Shown here piece by piece: positions 3,375 through 50,040 of a stretch of 64,000 nt of DNA. Numbering within the stretch: position 1 is the stretch's first letter; every line of letters begins with the position of its first letter. Source of the stretch: Fasciola hepatica. Taxonomy: Eukaryota > Platyhelminthes > Trematoda > Plagiorchiida > Fasciolidae. The stretch lies in NCBI GenBank assembly GCA_948099385.1, contig CANUEZ040000156.1, forward strand, positions 5,849,501-5,913,500. Direction: 5' to 3'. The translations under genes were made by a program, and so were the position numbers. The notes under the pieces are model-generated. The model did not search any database. It was not told the DNA's origin and saw only the letters and a program-made list of their open reading frames with translations.

Positions 3375-3570
3375 AAGTGTGGTGGCGCAGTGATACCACA
3401 CCCGCTTCTGAAGTAAAAGCACGCGGGTGTGAATCCTGGATATGGCAGGGGGGGGGGAACCAAGGATGAGTTCCAACAAGAGCGAAATGCCAGTCCGGTA
3501 CTTCCGAGGGCAGGGTTTTGCGGATAACTTGGGAATCGTGAAGTCCAAAGGACTGTCAGTCAGGAAAAAT
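3375..3570 (+). repeat. tRNA-derived SINE-like unit (family S4)
   Basis: A pol III-type promoter layout is visible. An A-box-like TGGCGCAGTGAT lies at 3,383-3,394 and a B-box-like GGGTGTGAATCC at 3,425-3,436, about 40 nt apart, as in a tRNA gene. The region between them does not keep a convincing cloverleaf and the 3' half runs into a poly-G tract, so this is a tRNA-derived repeat and not a tRNA gene. The downstream border at about 3,570 is a guess. An 84-codon open frame (3,442-3,696) overlaps it and is not recognised. Confidence 0.5.
3448..3457. repeat. poly-G run (10 nt)
   Basis: Ten consecutive G residues lie directly after the B-box region of the S4 SINE-like unit. Confidence 0.9.
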
Positions 3571-11584: not shown

Positions 11585-11680
11585 GACTCTTCACACTTAC
11601 ACACTCATAAAGATTCAAGCGCGATTTCAGTGGGAAAATGAACTATGGAGTGTACAAGCATAGGAATGATTGGCCTCAGT
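11585..11680 (+). repeat. 5' flank of hammerhead repeat, diverged copy
   Basis: AGATTCAAG...GATTTCAGTGG at 11,611-11,633 aligns with AGATTCAAG...GATTCCAGTGG at 20,473-20,494. The upstream CTCTTCA word at 11,587 matches CTCTTCA at 20,439 in the same order. Both lie 60-80 nt upstream of stem I of their hammerhead. The unit that carries the ribozyme at 20 kb therefore seems present here too, more diverged. The alignment is short and was made by eye. Confidence 0.45.
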
Positions 11681-11745
11681 GTACCGGGTATGCATACATG
11701 ATAAACAGCAATAACTGTGAAACTGGTCACGTGCTTCCGGGGATG
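11681..11745 (+). ncRNA. hammerhead ribozyme-like motif, type I, copy A (core mutated)
   Basis: Predicted fold, read directly from the sequence. Distal stem I is CCGG (11,684-11,687) with CCGG (11,737-11,740). Proximal stem I is GCATAC (11,692-11,697) opposite ACGTGC (11,729-11,734), with two mismatches next to the core. The catalytic box ATGATAA (11,698-11,704) differs from the invariant CUGAUGA at two positions. Stem II is ACAG/CTGT closed by loop CAATAA (11,705-11,718). GAAA (11,719-11,722) is intact. Minimal stem III is C-TG-G. The expected cleavage triplet GTC ends at 11,728. The arrangement (GAAAC, two-base loop, GUC) is that of minimal type I hammerheads known from Penelope-like elements and salamander satellite RNA. 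The first C and the G of the catalytic box are lost, so this copy is probably inactive. Confidence 0.7.
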
Positions 11746-11759
11746 TTTTTTTGAAGTCG

Positions 11760-14700: not shown

Positions 14701-17700
14701 TCCACGTTTTGTGTGTCAGTCATAACTGCTGAAGTTCAGATTGTTCCAGCTGGCTCTAAACGCATACACTGGCCAATGGATGGTTCCGAACGAAAGCAAT
14801 TGTTCATTCGTATGAAGATGGGATACAATATTGGCCATGTTCTTGGTGAAGGTCCAACCGATGGCCAATCATCAGAGCTTTATGATTTGATCGGAAAAGC
14901 GATGCTTCGCACCAAACTGTTATCTCATTTGTGGGGTGGCTCCCTGCCGTTAACTTTAGAGAGCTTTTGATATGCGTTCGGAAAGATTAGGAGTGGACGC
15001 GCAGCAATATCTGCTGAGGTTGAACAACTGAAAACGTTTCTGAATAAGATGTTTGACAACAGATATTTCCGGTCACAACCATCATTCCAACGTCAACAAA
15101 ATAATCCTATATGTACGAATAATGCCACTTATTTTGCTATGTTTGTTTGGCACTAGTAATAAATGAAGCAGTTAGATCCTGTAACTATTCGGGAAAACAA
15201 GACAGAAGACAAATTCTGCGAGCCTAGGAGAGGAATTCCTCTAGCAGCATGTGTCGTCTGCCATAGTTGATCAGCCTGAAAAATATATATTCTCTTATTT
15301 GAATAGAAGCTGCATCATTGACAAAATAAGTTGCTATGATAACTTGAGTATACTGAGTTGACGGTTGATGGACATGATACGTCCAACTGTGATTTTAGAA
15401 TTATCTACAATGATGTCTTTCAGATTAATTTAAGAAAAGGGTTCAAACAGAGGTTAGAGCATAATACTTGTGATGTTGGTTGTAAAGTAACTTGGCGAAC
15501 AACATTATTGATTCACGTTTATGAATGACAATTATGAGGGACTAAGCTGAGTTCCACATCTAACTCCGGAGATATACCTCGACGACAATATTCATTTAGT
15601 TTGATAGAGTCATGGCTTCCTATTTTCAGGAACCTCTGTCATGGTCGGAATGTTGGTACTGCGTCAAGAATCTTTGTGCAAATATTTGTACCTTCTCTCG
15701 AAGTCTTGTCACGCCTTATTTCCACTCTTCAATGACGATAAGGATTTAAAATACTTACCACTTCACTGAGGTTAAATCGATAATAAATTTAATTGAGAGG
15801 TTTCAGCTTTGCACTTCTCTGTTTGCTTGTTTGGAGGATCCATCAAATCGCCACCGATTAATCTTTCAGATGCTGTGTACCTATTTCTTCTGGAGTGTTA
15901 CGACACATCAGCAGTACTCACAATGCTCACATAACCAAACTACCGCAAACTTAACGCAATTACGGCTGCTGACTACAAAGACTGATAATTATCCAGTGTG
16001 AGAAGCTGAAAGATAACAGGAACTCGCATTGCATTGCTTTTTAATGAAGTCAGCCTCCTTGCCTGCACTATAATACCAATTCGAGCTTAGTTTGGATATG
16101 GTAAATGGCTGTACACTATACTCATATGTTAAAAAGGTAAAGCACTCAAGTGCTTGCCCAGAGGCCTGTCTGATTTATTTTACTACTATATTGTCGTTAT
16201 TATTTTTGTCTTGACTCATTAACATCATCGTCTATTAGCAAAAGACGCTCGATGTAGTAATAACTTGAGGAATCCGCCGAATTTTTACCCAGTTCATTCA
16301 CTGATATTAGGTGGCAGACCTAAAACTTCAAGCTCTTTTATCACACGGATTGAGTTTCCAAGTCACATTCAAATTCTGTTTCCTTTCTTAACCCTAGAAA
16401 TACGTCAGGAAAATTTCCGTTGTTCGAAATATACAATAATACCGTGGAAACAAACCTCGGTACGACTTTTATACAACTCCCAATAATCAGCACGTTCTCT
16501 GATGTCGACAGTTTCAGAAACACCATTACATGGTTTTCCTCCCTTAAATGTTAGGATTTTACATCTTCCATATTCCAGAATTTTCTGCTTCATTTTTGGT
16601 GAACACTAAGAGGTTGCACGTTATCTTTCACAACTGTACATTGGTTGCTTACCCACACTTTCAGAATGTCTGTGAGGACAGTATGCACATGGGAGGACCA
16701 ATACCAATATTGAGTAAGTCTAAGATCCATTATCTGATGTTTCTGCGGTTCTTTCGTCTAAAAATCTTCAAAACTATTTACGATTATTCAGTTGGTATTC
16801 GTTTTTTGCTGCGAAAATATCTCCTGCACTTCATTGTTTCATAAACTCTAAACTTGTTTACGAAAACTTCAAAGTTTTTTTGGCAGACTCGATATGACTT
16901 TATTCAGGGAGATATTATGATTCAAATTATCTTGCCTTATCACATGACAGCATGTTTTGGACTGCAATCAAAAACACTAGAGCACACTTAGTTTCCAATC
17001 CCGCTTCGTGCAATTGGCAGGCATCTTTAACAAATTACATTATGACTTCCGCATGCGTTCGGTATCAAGATGTTGTGCCTGCACAAGTCAATCTTGTTAT
17101 GGCTGTCGACTATTTATGATGCATAGCAATAACTTCGAAAGTATTTTTCAAAACTCTCGATGACACATAAGAAAAACCATGGGTCACCCAAGTGCTTTTT
17201 TGTACTGCTTGTCGAATTCACTAACCGGAGTGGACAAGCAGGTGTGGTCATTCCTGGAGAGTTCTATCTGTACAAACAACACGGTGATGTACACGTGAAC
17301 ATGGCACGGACAAAAATTAACTTGCTTCATGGTCCTAGAATTAGAAGAACACTATCATCAGATACAAGGATGGGGACGACGTTCCTGTTTAATTTTTCAC
17401 AAGGTAAGGGAAAGCATCTGTTCACATTTGCATAAGATGGCTATGATAAACAAAAATTTAAACCTAAAACATCTGCAATACTCACCAGATCAAGATCTAT
17501 GTTTCTGAATAAGAAACGTATATCATAAACACTTGTGTTGGCAGAAATGAAGAAAAGCAGCTTTCTATTTTACTTTTCTGTTACCCACAGAAGCAGTTAA
17601 ACGCCTAAACCAAATGTGGAACTGCGAACAGTTCAGGACACCAAATTCTTTCGTGGACTAACAGCTCATCGAATCAAAATAAAGTCCACTACATAATTCA

Positions 17701-20078: not shown

Positions 20079-20130
<52 letters not shown>
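20079..20130. repeat. (TA)n microsatellite
   Basis: About 26 uninterrupted TA units are seen directly. It abuts the ATATG end of the left hammerhead-repeat copy. Confidence 0.97.
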
Positions 20131-20134
<4 letters not shown>

Positions 20135-20329
20135 CACTAGAATCTAATTTGAATCTTCTGGGCTGTGAATGGATAATCTTCATTGAAGAGCCCGCAAATG
20201 AATCACAACTGTGATTTCTCATAGTTATTCGTGTCTGGGTCACTGCTAATCCAACGAACAACGAGGCTGCATGTGCAAGCGCTCATATTGATAGTGAGTG
20301 GTATGTGAACGTGTGGACAAAATCCTCTA
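20131..20329 (-). repeat. hammerhead-repeat monomer, left copy (no ribozyme core)
   Basis: Read on the minus strand from 20,328 down, this begins with AGAGGATTTTGTCCACACGT. That is the sequence found about 12 nt after the predicted cleavage site in the right copy. It then runs directly into ACTATCAATATGAGCGC, which is the 5' part of the right copy. So the unit's 3' end is joined to its 5' end, as in a tandem or circular monomer. The rest is about 90% identical by eye to the right arm (e.g. GTGAATGGATAATCTTCATT in both). It stops at the (TA)n tract before reaching the ribozyme. Together with the right copy it forms a long inverted repeat with arms of about 165 bp. Confidence 0.8.
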
Positions 20330-20599
20330 CTTATCAATAATATGAGCGCTTGCACATACAGCCTCGTTGTTCGTTGGGTTAGCAGTGACCCAGACATGAA
20401 TACCTATGATAAATCACAGTTGTGATTCATTTTGTGGGCTCTTCAATGAAGATTATCCATTCACAGTCCAGAAGATTCAAGTAAGATTCCAGTGGACATA
20501 TAAGATCAGAGTGGGAAGAGGAGTACCGGGTACGCATATCTGATGAGCAGCAACAACCGCGGAACCGGTCGTGTGCTTCCGAGGAGATTCTGTCCACAC

Positions 20600-20605
<6 letters not shown>
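20330..20605 (+). repeat. hammerhead-repeat monomer, right copy
   Basis: The 5' part (20,330-20,500) is the inverted partner of 20,131-20,297. It is followed by a ribozyme-bearing segment and by GATTCTGTCCACACGTTTAC, then (TA)n. Using the left copy to supply the 3'-to-5' junction, the distance from one cleavage site to the next would be about 280 nt. That is within the range of hammerhead satellites and retrozyme-like monomers. A 138-codon minus-strand open frame that crosses this copy is partly translated (TA)n and is not a protein of its own. Confidence 0.8.
20521..20582 (+). ncRNA. hammerhead ribozyme, type I, copy B (near-complete core)
   Basis: Seen directly. Stem I is GCATAT (20,534-20,539) with GTGTGC (20,571-20,576), six pairs including two U-G wobbles. 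The intact catalytic box CTGATGA is at 20,540-20,546. Stem II is GCAG/CCGC around loop CAACAA (20,547-20,560). GGAA stands where GAAA is expected (20,561-20,564). Minimal stem III is C-CG-G, and the GTC cleavage triplet ends at 20,570. A distal CCGG/CCG pairing extends stem I beyond an internal loop, as in natural hammerheads where loop-loop contacts matter. The only core defect is A-to-G at the second base of GAAA; the third stem II pair is also an A-C mismatch. RNA from the + strand would be expected to cleave after 20,570 if active. The mutated core base makes that doubtful. Confidence 0.8.
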
Positions 20606-20647
<42 letters not shown>

Positions 20648-20669
20648 CGTATATATATATATATATATT
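20606..20669. repeat. (TA)n microsatellite, interrupted
   Basis: (TA)n runs from 20,606 to 20,646, is interrupted by ACGT, and resumes from 20,651 to 20,669. It separates the hammerhead repeat from the truncated Helitron gene. Confidence 0.97.
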
Positions 20670-20689
20670 AGGCGAAACAGCACACTTGT

Positions 20690-21430
20690 CTAACGTGTAT
20701 AGTTTCGCAACGGCTGTGGGAAAGCAATATTTTTTGTTGTTCACCGATATCTGTGTTCTAGATTGCAAGACCAGCTCGTGATTCTTATAATTATTCTCAA
20801 TAGCCACACGTATTTCCTCAACCAATTCTTCGTTTGACGTCACTAAGTTGCAGAAGTTATGAGTTCATCAACCTCGTCCTGACTTCAGGTCGATCGGCAC
20901 CTTTCCGTCCTCAATTTCTAGAAACTGGTGTGAGAATATCTCAGGTAATCGATCGTTTTGCAGCTGCACAAGCAAATTTGTAGTTAATTTTAACGTTTTC
21001 ACGTGTCGGCACGGAGTAGAGTATTTCAGGCAAACATTTATTTCATCTGCTGGTGTCGACCGAGAAATTACAGGTAGTGTTGGCTTGAAATCTCCTGCAA
21101 GCAAAATCAGCGCTTTCCCCAAATGGTCTGATATTTCCACACAAACCTTGCAATAATCAATCAAGAGCCTCCAGTAAATGCTATGAGCCATTGTGCATGC
21201 ATCCGAAAACAATGATCTTGCATTTCTGTTATACTTTTCTCATCCCGGATACCTTGTAAATATAGAACGTAAGAGTTCCGATTACCCGGATATTCAGGGG
21301 CGATTTCAAAGCAGAATGAGCCAACCCTTCAGCTGGTAGCAATGTTGCAGCTGTCCGGGAGGACACAAGAGCTAAGGCTATGTCGCTAAGGGATCGAGTT
21401 GCTGCTAGAATCAATCTGATTAGGAACTTT
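20690..21430 (-). pseudogene. Helitron helicase domain (Pif1-like), degenerate and 3'-truncated
   Basis: Minus-strand frames read in order: IALALVSSRTAATLLP (~21,340-21,390) then AHSALKSPLNI; DACTMAH (~21,175-21,200, family DECTMAH); ILLAGDFKPTLPVISRSTPA (~21,050-21,105); LQNDRLPEIFSHQFLEIEDG; TSNEELVEEI with IENNYKNHE (~20,775-20,840). These are the Pif1-type helicase motifs of a Helitron Rep/Hel protein, which unwinds DNA during rolling-circle transposition. Glu in the DE box is changed to Ala, and the Walker A segment expected just upstream is destroyed. The final helicase motifs (the KSQGQT-type block) are missing, because similarity ends at about 20,690 beside the (TA)n tract. Confidence 0.85.
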
Positions 21431-22330
21431 TCGCAAGTTCGTTTTTACGCCTTCAAATAGCTTTCTCTAATCTCGTAATTGACAGTTGGCAATACTTGAT
21501 TGTAAATGACAATTTGTTGAGGCTTTGTCTGCACATGCGACAAAAGATCATCCATGTTAGTATTTTGTTCACGAGGCAATTCCACATCAAACGAAGCCAC
21601 AGCAGGTTGGTTTAGTGACAGCTCTATCAATTGAATGAGATCTCTATTCGCTGTTTGTAAGCATAAATCTTCAGTCTCAATAAACGCTCCGTTGTAGATT
21701 TCTCCTGTGAAACCCGTGTTCTTATTTGAATTTTTCATACGTATTCGGCGGAATACGTCTTCAGCCATGTGAGATATAAATTCTTCCCATAAATCTATTT
21801 GAGATACACGAGAGCTGGCTGTCAATATGATTGCCATCAATGCAAGAATTTGGTTGGGATATGGCGGACTTCATGCGTCTGTGATGGATACATCCCAGTG
21901 TCCGCCGTTCTCTAATAAATTCAGAGCTTGACATGCACCGCCAAAAGTTGCATATGCACCGCCGGTGACAATTCTCAGTTGATGGAAATATATTGGACCG
22001 GGCACATTGACCAACAGCGTGTGAAGAAAGAAAGACTCATGTTGCCTCGGGTGCAAAGCATGCGGTTTTTCTATCGTAGTTCCCTCAAGTGCGCCAGGTT
22101 GTTCGTCGACCAGTTCTCCCCATCTGGGTCAGTCAAATGATTTTCCACTGACATTCCATGTGTAATAAGTAGGCACTTCCGAATACAAGAATGATTTTGC
22201 CACTTCTTCATTTTGTCACAACGTGAAGAAAGCAGTTAGCGCTGTAGCCAGTGAATTCAGGTCTAATTTTTGCACTTTTGTAACTGTGTAGTGAATGTGT
22301 TGTCCATTTTACAGGTGTACTGCTGAGTAA
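21431..22330 (-). pseudogene. Helitron linker and helicase N-terminal region, degenerate
   Basis: A 131-codon minus frame (21,445-21,840) has NGAFIETEDLCLQTANRDLI and FDVELPREQNTNMDDLLSHV, then a VNYEIRES block. These correspond to the segment before Walker A in Helitron helicases. A second frame (21,871-22,056) has HTLLVNVPGPIYFHQLRIV and ACQALNLLENGGHWDVSITD (family LLVNVPGP..F..LRTV, ACQ.L.LLE.D.HWD). Where family members read DAPGGTGKTFLI, this copy has a stop and KRTCEKFLI (~21,425-21,455), so the ATP-binding loop is gone. The order of blocks is that of an intact element. Confidence 0.85.
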
Positions 22331-23860
22331 ACTACCGCTGGGCTTTATTCATGTACGGGAAATGAAAGAATTTGCCACACAGCTTCATTGCTGCTTGTGT
22401 ATCTCTCAGCCTGATACTGTGCGGTTTCGTCGATACGTATTACAGCAGTCCGATCACTTCTTCCTGGTTGTACGCCAAAGCCGCCATATTGCTGCATTCA
22501 TTCACATCTTCACAGACGTATTTATCGACTCACCGGAATTAGAGTATCACACGCTTATGTGCGCTTTGTATGCTATTTATAACAGGAGCGAATATGGGAC
22601 AACCCACCGGATATCTTCTTCGATGTCGCCGTTGCGCATTTTTATGGTTGCTAATTTACCATCACATTTGACTGACGCTTTTCTCTATGAAGGATACCCA
22701 TCGTTTCCTGTGATTGTGTTGAATACTGTTGCTCGAGTATATCGCTAAGAGCATTTTCCGTCCGTCATGCATAGTCAATTTGCATCCAGTATACTGCAAG
22801 GTCCGTGTATCAAATTTTTGTCACAACTTCATGCAAATCCTTATCGACTTTTGCTTCGGGTATTTTGGCGCATAATACTTCGTCCATTTATCTTGATATG
22901 AATTTGTTGTAGAGCCAGGTTAGTATATGTGCGTGCGGCAACCCACTTTTTTGCCATACCACTGATTACATTCAGTAGCGCACAGACTGAAACACGTCAG
23001 GTTTTACCATGAACTCCATCGGCATTCCCAGTTGCTATGGAGTCATGCCCATCCACCGACGATTGTCCAGGGAGCAAGAGTTGTTGCATATCGTTTTAAG
23101 CCAGATTGCATGTGAATGTATTGAATAAGTCTGGACGTCCGTAGTGACAAACATACACAATTACATTTTGAATCTACTCATACCCATGCCGTGGACTGCC
23201 TGTACATGAAGATGGCAAGATCGTTATTCATCCAACGGTAGTTTTATTACAGTCATTGATAACTGCATCTCACAAATGAAAGAATTCTACAGAGCGAAGC
23301 TTGATCAGATTAAAATGGATGGATATCAAACGTTCTGTTTTCATTGTTACGATGCAGCGGTGAAACAATTGACGGCATTTCTACTTGTGATTGTCTTCAT
23401 TCTCTTTAATCTATTATCGGCATGAATAATAGTTCTTTCACCTGCATTCCATATTTGTTTCTTTGCCACTGAGTGGAATTACTATCTTACCGTGAGAGTG
23501 ATAATCATCGACACCTTCCAAAATTTAATTGCAAATTGTAGACCATCATAGCATCGACGAGTTTCCGCAATTTTGTTTCAACTGGTCGTTTCTCCGACGA
23601 GCAACAATATCTTCAGGTTAGAAGTAATCTCTGACTGTAGCAATTCTCACTTCGCCTATAGTTGGAGCATTGAATCTTCGCACACGTCCGCCTGCAGGCT
23701 TTGTGGCATCATGGATAATAATCCTGTGTGTCGTTTGGTATGATGTCAATCGCGGTTTTAGAGAAACTTACCAAAATGGTGAGGTGGGAAATGTTTTGAT
23801 TCGGCGGTGAATCCGGCAAACAAAGTTTGTAATGACTATCGTGGTTCTCCAGGTGTAAGC
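22331..23860 (-). pseudogene. Helitron Rep (HUH nuclease) domain, degenerate
   Basis: Minus-strand frames give the replication initiator part of the same element. RRFNAPTIGEV is near 23,665-23,700, then RPVETKLRKL. A block at ~23,050-23,090 corresponds to the family LLLPGQ...GHD segment. VWQKSGLPHAHILTWL (~22,926-22,973) holds the HUH metal motif as H-A-H. DKYV (~22,510-22,525) holds a candidate catalytic Tyr, and KFFHFPYMNKAQR (~22,335-22,375) matches the family RIFSFPIHER. Many stops and frameshifts interrupt it. A 128-codon frame on the opposite strand (22,362-22,748) is an antisense shadow. Confidence 0.8.
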
Positions 23861-29984: not shown

Positions 29985-30620
29985 GGTCTGTAGAGTGGAG
30001 GGATTGCCGCGGCAGCTTGATAGCACACACAAAATTTGTTTTTGGGCACACAGGTGGGGGAGGGTGTTGTGTAGGGCGGAGGTCGACAGCTTCAGCAGTG
30101 GCCATGATGCGACATTTTGTTTGTCTTGATTGTCGACCCCGGATCTTATACAGGGCACGAAAAGCCTCGGACACGTTTACTAAGATTGGATTCAGGTTGG
30201 TGTGAACAGACTGTGCTAGTAAGCGATCTTATTGTTCCAGTGTTCAACCATGCAGGATGGTGTTCGCGGATACATTCAGACAAAAACCTGGTCGTGCGGC
30301 CGATGTACATTGTCCCACAGGAACAAGTGAATAAGTACACACAGAATGAAACTGCACAACCGGCTATTTTTTTGTTTCAACCGCAAAATCATTGCCGGTC
30401 TGGACGAGAACAACATCAGCAGATTAGTTGGCTTACGTGTTTTTCTGGTGATGCCTGACGATCTTCTCTGGGACATCTCTGCCAACGTGTCGCCTTCGAA
30501 TGGCAAAGATATGCCTCCTTTCTACCGCAGACTCTTGGAGTTTTCCACTCTATCTGCATAATCCTAACAACTAAGCGGTCTGGGTGGCCATTTCGAGCGG
30601 AAATCCTTAGCACCCTTCAA
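29985..30620 (-). pseudogene. Penelope-like element C-terminal fragment (GIY-YIG), minus strand
   Basis: Read from 30,620 down, frames give RVCGRKEAYL; LPFEGDTLAEMSQRR (family LPFKGDSLAE) and LMLFSSRPAMILRLK; YLFTCSCGTMYIGRTTRFLS with ECIREHHPAWLN (30,230-30,340); TVCSHQPESNLSKRVR; then a tail with KCRIMATAEAV and KTNFVCAIKLPRQS (down to ~29,990). The GIY-YIG signature YIGRTTR is intact, better kept than in the 19.3-kb copy. The coding sequence is nonetheless split over three frames, and no RT domain is attached upstream. It is a 5'-truncated copy, the usual outcome of target-primed insertion. Confidence 0.85.
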
Positions 30621-30689: not shown

Positions 30690-30785
30690 TCATTGTGTAT
30701 GTACGTATTCACTTGTTCCTGTGGGACAATGTACATCAGCCGCACGACCAGGCTTTTGTCTGAACGTTACCTGGTAAACGCTTCG
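30690..30785 (+). pseudogene. Penelope-like GIY-YIG fragment, plus strand
   Basis: The + strand reads YVFTCSCGTMYISRTTRLLS then ERYLVNAS. This is the same GIY-YIG block as at 30,276-30,345, in opposite orientation, with YIG changed to YIS. Similarity fades after ERYL and before the Tyr. It may be a separate truncated insertion or an inverted duplication. Confidence 0.75.
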
Positions 30786-49499: not shown

Positions 49500-49760
49500 G
49501 GCACCAGGGGCCTGAATGTCATGTAGTGGAAGATCCACTTGCATTTCTCACATCGAATATTCGAAAGTCGAGAGCCGGAATCGAGCCGGCCACACTCCAG
49601 ATACCAGTCAGATGGTCTACCAACTGACATTTCTAGGTCTGGACAGTTGGTTGTGAATAACACAAGTAAAAACTGATGTTGCGTGAACCAATAAATCCAA
49701 TTCAGGCTCCTCGTGCCAAAAATACATTGTGTTGAATATATTTGATGGTCCACCGATTCA
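49500..49760 (-). repeat. dispersed repeat family S1, copy b (tRNA-like)
   Basis: On the minus strand an A-box region (TGTCAGTTGGTAGACC, ~49,613-49,628) is followed about 35 nt on by the B box GGCTCGATTCC (49,577-49,587). That is one mismatch from consensus. A tail AATGCAAGTGGATCTTCC ends the unit. Upstream, GGTTCACGCAACATCAG and GTGTTATTCACAACC match copy c. The layout is that of a SINE with an unrelated 5' segment fused to a tRNA-like part. The 114-codon frame across it (49,484-49,828) is a by-product. Confidence 0.65.
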
Positions 49761-49794: not shown

Positions 49795-50040
49795 TGACCG
49801 ACGAGGCTAGCCAAACGGTTAAAACCAAGAGAGTTGTTTTTTATCACCGAAATAGTGGTTCGCGCAACACTGATAGATTTCTCGTGTTATTCACACTTGA
49901 CTGTCCGGACCACGAAATCTCCGTGAGTAGAGCATCTGCCTGGTATGGGGATTGTCGCCGTCTCGATTCCGGCTAGCGGAATTTGACATTTCGATGCTAA
50001 AAATGCAATTAGATTTTCCATTACACAATCATTACAGTGT
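49795..50040 (+). repeat. dispersed repeat family S1, copy c (tRNA-like)
   Basis: The unit starts near GACGAGGCTAGCC and continues with GGTTCGCGCAACACTG, GTGTTATTCACACTTGAC and CCGTGAGTAGAGCATC. It then has the B-box-like GTCTCGATTCC (49,960-49,970) and the tail AAAATGCAATTAGATTTTCC. It is the inverted neighbour of copy b: the two 5' ends face each other with only a few tens of bases between. Agreement with copies a and b is about 70-75% by eye. Confidence 0.65.

What the first reader, a model, noticed from the sequence alone, without database searches (positions are those of the whole stretch)
20521..20582. Near-complete type I hammerhead ribozyme with minimal stem III
Stem I (GCATAT/GTGTGC), intact CTGATGA, a stem II hairpin with loop CAACAA, GGAA in place of GAAA, then C-CG-G and GTC all appear in the exact order and spacing of a type I hammerhead. 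The GAAAC-NN-GUC arrangement is the minimal stem III form known from Penelope-like elements and amphibian satellite RNA. One core base (A to G) is mutated. It lies in a repeat that is not a tRNA, SINE or protein-coding element, so a self-cleaving RNA family is the best explanation.
Basis: partly seen in the sequence, partly recalled or inferred. Interest (0 to 1): 0.9.

Follow-up and report, generated by a model that had tools for sequence, protein, structure and literature searches.

The report
Hammerhead retrozyme inserting into TA repeats
The spot is a worn copy of a self-cutting RNA element that is present tens of thousands of times in this animal genome, and many of whose copies end at the same two short words against runs of TATATA, a strong hint of how such elements insert themselves.

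Summary
Window 20525-20584 is a degenerate type I hammerhead: one core change (GAAA to GGAA) and one A.C mismatch in stem II. It belongs to a 301-bp non-coding family of the host genome (1.5 Gb). 46,937 places match the intact ribozyme at up to 3 mismatches; the reversed control gives 0. Arrays sampled over 90 kb and more are nearly all core-intact where counted. Stem III is a palindrome (ACCGGU), so cutting is probably dimeric. This is a metazoan non-LTR retrozyme, a known kind. New is how copies end. The unit holds only two ATAT words, and most sampled 3' ends lie there, against (TA)n: 1,768 and 1,096 such junctions genome-wide, 5 for one control place. Five-prime ends scatter. Of 29 junction-sampled insertions, 15 are two copies with 3' ends outward, as if both DNA strands primed. 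The window copy is such a pair. This fits target-primed reverse transcription at TA microsatellites, started inside a circular or multimeric RNA, probably by a Penelope-like enzyme (inferred; searches for one did not complete).

The parts
20525..20584 (+). Degenerate type I hammerhead: stem Ib 20526-20529/20579-20582 (one C.A mismatch), stem I 20534-20539/20571-20576, core CTGATGA 20540-20546, stem II 20547-20550/20557-20560 with one A.C mismatch, GGAA in place of GAAA at 20561-20564, palindrome ACCGGT 20564-20569, predicted cut after C20570
   Evidence: own covariance model 84.4 bits (the copy is one of the 22 in the model)
20327..20608 (+). Right arm of the insertion: unit positions 39-301 and 1-38; its 3' end (ACATA) runs into (TA)n
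20127..20323 (-). Left, inverted arm: unit positions 17-213; its 3' end (ACATATA) runs outward into (TA)n
20079..20131 (.). Left (TA)n tract at the insertion site
20606..20646 (.). Right (TA)n tract at the insertion site, continued at 20650-20668
11647..11749 (+). Older, 76%-identical fragment of the same family (unit 219-301 and 1-21); hammerhead at 11683-11742 with a broken core but two both-sided changes in stem II
3448..3509 (+). Relic of a different hammerhead element (not the same family); the stretch before it looks tRNA-like by eye, but ARAGORN finds no tRNA in the window
   Evidence: (21.9 bits, E 0.003)

Best explanation
The locus is a dead insertion of a 301-nt non-autonomous, non-coding retroelement of the metazoan non-LTR retrozyme kind. 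Tandem copies are transcribed. A type I hammerhead, completed by pairing of the palindrome ACCGGU between two copies, cuts the RNA at GUC^G, and the unit-length RNA is circularised (inferred). A reverse transcriptase cuts TA-microsatellite DNA on both strands. The TATA-ended DNA primes on the two ATAT words inside the RNA (unit 52-55 and 209-213), and the enzyme copies around the circle or multimer until it falls off, which leaves ragged 5' ends. Often both DNA ends prime, which leaves two copies with their 3' ends facing outward. The enzyme is most likely a Penelope-like RT with a GIY-YIG endonuclease. Shown: the ribozyme family by sequence, its abundance, the junctions and the inverted pairs. 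Inferred: transcription, cleavage, circularity, dimeric cutting, the enzyme.
For: Family and ribozyme: 46,937 matches at up to 3 mismatches against 0 in the control; HH9 up to 42.4 bits; arrays in C369, C570 and C129 from about 11,055,430 to contig end at every place read, with 292 core-intact ribozymes for 295 matches over 200 bp in ten of the 13 array stretches. Retrozyme traits: 301-bp tandem unit, 45.8% GC, longest frame 126 codons over three units, circular fold z -4.63 with 0 of 100 shuffles as low. Ends: the only ATAT words are at 52 and 209. Junction word + TA: 1,768 matches (reversed control 73) and 1,096 (control 1); one non-ATAT place in the unit gives 5. In 29 loci sampled by one junction the far edge was a second 3' end in 15, 14 of them at 55 or 212/213 and 13 of 15 next to TA; 14 far 5' ends lay at 13-263, 9 of them next to TA. 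In 21 loci chosen by similarity alone, 17 of 27 3' ends met TA, 15 of these at 51-55 or 213. Of 25 exact 213-junctions on contigs up to C41, 12 had an exact 55-junction within 1 kb, all 12 outward-facing. TA tracts of 10 nt or more lie within 10 nt of 0.34% of window positions. Copies longer than one unit cross the cut site (L019, L020, L076). A purified Penelope-like protein cleaves AT-rich DNA, extends both strands and starts internally in its RNA (PMC11167929).
Against: No RNA data, so transcription, cleavage and circles are untested. No Penelope-like gene was found: the family searches of the genome did not complete. In PMC11167929 internal starts were not homologous to the cut DNA and were two adjacent sites; here they are homologous and 158 nt apart. 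In the similarity-chosen set 10 of 27 3' ends had no TA tract within 6 nt, and 7 of 15 5' ends did meet TA. Tandem units within one insertion are not always alike: L019's two copies differ at three sites, L020's at nine or more, L076's first unit from its other two, so a single circle as template is not proven. Pairing and covariation are not above shuffles (92.0% of cells paired, shuffles 92.1%).
Confidence: 0.8

Rival explanations
1. The unit is satellite DNA that spreads at the DNA level: circles excised from arrays recombine into TA repeats through ATAT microhomology, and the ribozyme is a passenger.
For: Long homogeneous arrays; junctions sit at microhomology words; some 5' ends meet TA too (9 of 14, 7 of 15).
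Against: Circle insertion by one crossover predicts whole units that begin and end at the same word. Observed copies have scattered 5' ends and outward-facing pairs (12 of 12 located pairs). The core is kept in 43 of 60 dispersed ribozyme regions read.
Confidence: 0.1
2. Retroposition without an element endonuclease: (TA)n breaks are primed by any LINE reverse transcriptase present, so TA marks fragile sites rather than an enzyme's choice.
For: TA repeats are self-complementary and could prime both ends (inference); a reverse transcriptase frame of LINE look lies in L064, its relatives carry PF00078.
Against: A Penelope-like enzyme is known to cut AT-rich DNA on both strands and to start internally, while R2Bm and human LINE-1 were only shown to nick and extend one strand (PMC11167929).
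Confidence: 0.25
3. The unit is the pseudo-LTR or tail of an autonomous Penelope-like element rather than an independent retrozyme.
For: Penelope-like pseudo-LTRs carry minimal type I hammerheads and occur in tandem (PMC7761336).
Against: In the dispersed copies aligned no long interior was seen between units, and arrays are 301-bp units at all places read. Flanks were not searched for such a gene, so this is not excluded.
Confidence: 0.08
4. Chance resemblance to a hammerhead.
For: Descriptor hits occur in 2 of 60 random sequences.
Against: Tens of thousands of relatives with the intact or nearly intact form.
Confidence: 0.01

Closest known systems
Metazoan non-LTR retrozymes (Cervera and de la Pena 2020, PMC7229834)
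   Same: Type I hammerhead, 150-450 bp tandem units, GC below 50%, no ORF, stable self-paired circle fold, tandem and dispersed copies
   Different: Sequence not compared (no eukaryote database here); many copies end at two fixed ATAT words in TA microsatellites, often as outward-facing pairs. In the parts of that paper seen no such target or priming site is given; it leaves priming open
Newt and axolotl satellite hammerheads (as described in PMC7229834)
   Same: Repeats of about 330-350 bp, very weak stem III with palindromic loop, efficient as dimers
   Different: Here stem III is the bare palindrome ACCGGU; dimeric cutting only inferred
S. mansoni W-elements W25.2, W26.2, W27.2 (PMC8490949, passages)
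   Same: Satellite-like repeats with hammerheads of extremely short stem III, also found on autosomes
   Different: Sequence relation not tested; TA-junction rule not mentioned in the passages seen
SMalpha / Sjalpha SINE-like hammerhead elements of schistosomes (PMC8490949, passages)
   Same: Type I hammerhead in a dispersed repeat; this genome has separate hammerhead elements with tRNA-like boxes, by eye (L020, L064)
   Different: The 301-bp unit has no GTTCRA B-box word
Penelope-like element PAc of Anolis (PMC11167929)
   Same: AT-rich target, both strands extended, internal start of reverse transcription at two places, hammerhead in the RNA
   Different: Codes for its own protein; starts not homologous to target; two adjacent sites rather than two 158 nt apart

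Membership tests
Metazoan non-LTR retrozyme | Type I hammerhead with conserved core in the family | tested here: met
Metazoan non-LTR retrozyme | Short tandem unit, 150-450 bp, GC below 50%, non-coding | tested here: met
   301 bp, 45.8% GC, longest open frame 126 codons across three units
Metazoan non-LTR retrozyme | Stable, highly self-paired circular fold | tested here: met
   -94.8 kcal/mol, z -4.63, 0 of 100 shuffles as low
Metazoan non-LTR retrozyme | Dispersed copies with marks of reverse transcription | tested here: met
   3' ends mostly at fixed words, scattered 5' ends, multi-unit copies
Metazoan non-LTR retrozyme | No LTR, primer binding site or polypurine tract | not tested
   No search was made for them
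Metazoan non-LTR retrozyme | Self-cleavage and abundant circular RNA in tissue | not testable with these tools
   No RNA data
Rfam Hammerhead_1 / Hammerhead_HH9 | Score at or above the gathering threshold | tested here: not met
   No hit at gathering in the window or in 19 loci; in six more loci the family's best HH9 score is 42.4 of 52 bits
Type I hammerhead ribozyme (works like) | CUGANGA, three stems, GAA, A-U at stem III, H before the cut; active when made | tested here: inconclusive
   Sequence and stems met in the family consensus; covariation no better than shuffles; activity not testable
Penelope-like element | RT plus GIY-YIG reading frame between the repeats | not tested
   Genome searches for PF01541 unanswered
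SMalpha-type SINE | tRNA-like head with pol III boxes | tested here: not met
   No GTTCRA word in the unit; a simple word test only

The most novel reading that the evidence does not exclude
A circular ribozyme RNA is reverse-transcribed directly at TA microsatellites: both self-complementary TA ends of a cut prime on either of two internal ATAT words of the circle, so the insertion rule of this retrozyme family can be read from its sequence (where ATAT lies in the unit), and a large share of insertions (15 of 29, 6 of 21) are two-ended. The mobilising enzyme would be a Penelope-like RT acting in trans.
Probability: 0.5. Interest if true: 0.82.

Novelty: new variant of a known kind. Interest (0 to 1): 0.72.

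Why it matters
[quoted passage not shown] Here thousands of junctions in one genome suggest an answer: a TA-microsatellite target, two start words, both strands used. That makes the target-primed model testable from sequence in any genome with retrozymes, and it links them to the biochemistry of a Penelope-like protein published in 2024 (PMC11167929). It also shows that an abundant ribozyme family can stay below Rfam's gathering scores.

Tried and rejected
Rfam miRNA and pestivirus matches around the site fall on the TA tracts and on the inverted arms, far under gathering scores; set aside as low-complexity or palindrome effects. An exact 20-mer match in a Poribacteria MAG lacks the rest of the ribozyme; set aside as chance. 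The phage collection (window 20127-20605) and the viral contigs (the 20-mer only) gave nothing. Pfam on five open frames of the window gave nothing. A reverse transcriptase frame of L064 searched against the protein database did not name the host; I infer a trematode flatworm only from hammerhead elements with tRNA-like boxes (by eye and recall) like SMalpha/Sjalpha as named in PMC8490949, and it is untested. Covariation test: no signal. PF00115 (host mitochondrial gene), RF00163, PF01541 and a DNA search with the L020 element did not complete in the own genome, so host, total hammerhead census and Penelope-like gene are open. A chance figure of 1.1e-19 for 14 of 15 far ends in ATAT windows assumes uniform ends and is only a guide. 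The control place is one place only, and its TA run is 12 letters against 10 and 9 in the two junction patterns, so slightly stricter; its 5 matches all had 3 mismatches.

Rows dropped: L026 (same edges as L025) and L068 (same place as L067) (both; L026); L015 in the model alignment (indel; present, absent in A2). The array core count left out L034, L035 and L037 and the short probes L044-L051. L037, L049 and L050 hold units 95-98% like the consensus, so the 99% holds for three other stretches. The 30 loci were the first listed exact matches of 1,768, not a random draw; the dispersed loci L013-L033 were all 21 dispersed places that one search listed, and that list was cut. In one search one of the 100 places listed (on C42) was left out, to compare contigs C2 to C41 only.

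Full report
What is there. At 20525-20584 the sequence has all parts of a type I hammerhead in order, with GGAA for GAAA and an A.C mismatch in stem II. Outside the inner stem I lies a further helix, CCGG with CCGA (CCGG with CCGG in the majority of alignment A2), separated by an internal loop GTAC/TT, as in natural hammerheads with loop contacts (structure: what the sequence shows; the role of loop contacts is established knowledge).

Is it more than chance. A strict descriptor alone is weak evidence: one hit in the window but also in 2 of 60 random sequences, and 0.11 expected for the looser letter pattern. Rfam has no gathering-level hit and a sub-threshold Hammerhead_HH9 hit of 25.9 bits. 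The genome settles it. A DNA search gave 188 matches, many at 301-bp spacing. Array units mostly have GCATAC/GTGTGC, CTGATGA, GCGG-CAACAA-CCGC, GAAAC CG GTC intact; in L010 they score 33.3 to 42.4 bits with HH9, best E 5.1e-8. A 34-nt ribozyme pattern with up to 3 mismatches has 46,937 places in the genome, and the reversed pattern 0. If each stood in a full unit, that would be 14.1 Mb, nearly 1% of the genome; many are in shorter copies, so this is an upper figure.

Arrays. Contig C369 (93,693 bp) is array at both ends and at all places read; C570 (25,360 bp) likewise; C129 is array from about 11,055,430 to its end at 11,184,037 at all places read. In ten array stretches (three others, L034, L035 and L037, were not counted) there were 295 matches over 200 bp and 292 ribozymes with intact core; neighbouring stretches overlap by 1 to 100 bases, so the counts can be off by one or two. 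The 88 units compared are 99.1% alike on average, 95.7% at least.

Ribozyme details. Stem III is only A-U, C-G with a CG loop, too small for a hairpin. The six letters ACCGGU are their own reverse complement, so two ribozymes can share a 6-bp stem III; dimeric cutting of hammerheads with weak stem III is described in PMC7229834 and PMC7761336. Of 60 ribozyme regions found in 47 of 50 loci (the window among them), 43 have an intact core and 49 keep ACCGGT. In 21 distinct copies 92.0% of pair cells are paired, but shuffles reach 92.1% and covariation is not above shuffles; partners slid by 1-3 columns pair at 29-47%. The old copy at 11683 has two both-sided changes in stem II (G-C to A-U twice) but a broken core, so it is at best weak support.

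The unit as RNA. The consensus folds as a circle at -94.8 kcal/mol; shuffles average -71.0 (z -4.63, 0 of 100 as low); the antisense circle reaches -81.4. It has no B-box word GTTCRA and no open frame beyond 126 codons over three units.

Where copies end. I number the unit from the base after the cut. ATAT occurs only at 52 and 209, TATA only at 117 and 210. In 21 dispersed loci chosen by similarity alone there were 27 three-prime ends; 17 had a TA tract within 6 nt, and these lay at 51-55 (10), 213 (5), 120 (1, the TATA word) and 38 (1, CATA; the window copy). Ten had none (positions 35, 38, 42, 48, 48, 52, 54, 153, 213, 294). Fifteen five-prime ends were scattered over 21-255; 7 met TA. Six of the 21 loci were outward-facing inverted pairs. 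In the window 0.34% of positions lie within 10 nt of a TA tract of 10 nt or more, and three of its four tracts flank this insertion.

Genome-wide junction counts at up to 3 mismatches: position 55 + TA 1,768 (reversed control 73), position 213 + TA 1,096 (control 1), and one place in the unit without ATAT + TA 5, all with 3 mismatches (control 0). In 29 loci taken from the first list (one junction fixed by the search), the other edge was a second, inverted 3' end in 15 (11 at 213, one at 212, two at 55, one at 158; 13 of 15 at TA), and a 5' end in 14 (13 to 263; 9 at TA). On contigs C2-C41, 12 of 25 exact 213-junctions had an exact 55-junction within 1 kb, all 12 outward-facing. The window copy is the same kind of thing: left arm to 213, right arm to 38, TA on both sides.

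Reading. A preferred 3' word, ragged 5' ends and inverted two-ended insertions are marks of target-primed reverse transcription with priming from both DNA ends. Because the start words are inside the unit and copies run across the cut site for more than one unit (L019, L020, L076), the template was circular or multimeric. L019's two overlapping ribozymes share a T275C seen in no other region listed, but differ at three sites; L076's last two units share two changes that its first lacks; L020's two share only a common variant and differ at nine or more sites. This fits going round one circle in part but does not prove it. L020 is a junction between this unit (at 42) and a different hammerhead element with a tRNA-like B box (by eye), whose own 3' side lies close to TA repeats, as if the enzyme jumped between the two RNAs.

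Which enzyme. A purified Penelope-like protein of Anolis cleaves AT-rich DNA, extends both strands and starts inside its RNA at two adjacent sites (PMC11167929: abstract, passages and part 1 of 2 of the main text). Retrozyme authors name Penelope-like elements as a strong candidate (PMC7229834). Terminons attach to telomeric overhangs through complementary repeats next to a hammerhead (passage in PMC12477314). I could not look for such a gene here because the genome searches did not complete.

What is known and what is not. The family is of the retrozyme kind. Schistosome W-elements show satellites with extremely short stem III hammerheads (PMC8490949, passages). In four answered paper searches (the second and fourth listed 15 of 34 and 20 of 33 papers) no title or abstract start shown describes retrozymes ending in TA repeats. 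I saw only parts of five papers: PMC7229834 (parts 2 and 3 of 6, the discussion, passages), PMC7761336 (parts 1-3 of 6), PMC8490949 (passages), PMC12477314 (passages), PMC11167929 (as above). The library holds only open-licence papers, so this is not proof of absence.

Noticed in passing
window 20667-23200, minus strand: Decayed Helitron: Helitron_like_N and PIF1 matches in broken frames; a GCGAAAC...GTTTCGC hairpin followed by CTAA lies against the TA tract, possibly its 3' end (by eye).
   Followed up: partly
window 11683-11742: Second, older copy of the same hammerhead family, 49 of 60 positions like the consensus.
   Followed up: yes
window 3448-3509: Relic of a different hammerhead element; the stretch before it looks tRNA-like by eye, though ARAGORN finds no tRNA.
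   Followed up: partly
L020:1030-1160: Chimera: the 301-nt unit breaks off at position 42 and goes over into another element with a tRNA-like B box (by eye) and a hammerhead that passes Rfam's gathering score (36.0 against 34).
   Followed up: partly
L064:654-715 (-) and L064:1759-1820 (+): Two further hammerheads of other families, both with tRNA-like boxes before the ribozyme (by eye), about 1.1 kb apart; the first lies next to TA repeats beside a reverse transcriptase frame.
   Followed up: partly
dispersed copies against arrays: Most dispersed copies listed carry GGGG after the ribozyme's 3' strand where the consensus of three array stretches has GAGG, so these arrays may not be the main source of insertions.
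   Followed up: no
window 16483-16548, minus strand: Sub-threshold SNORD18 match, 29.4 bits (gathering 41).
   Followed up: no
window 30272-30349 with 30690-30767, and 49522-49693 with 49853-50025: Two further inverted repeats in the window, 92% and 75% identical.
   Followed up: no
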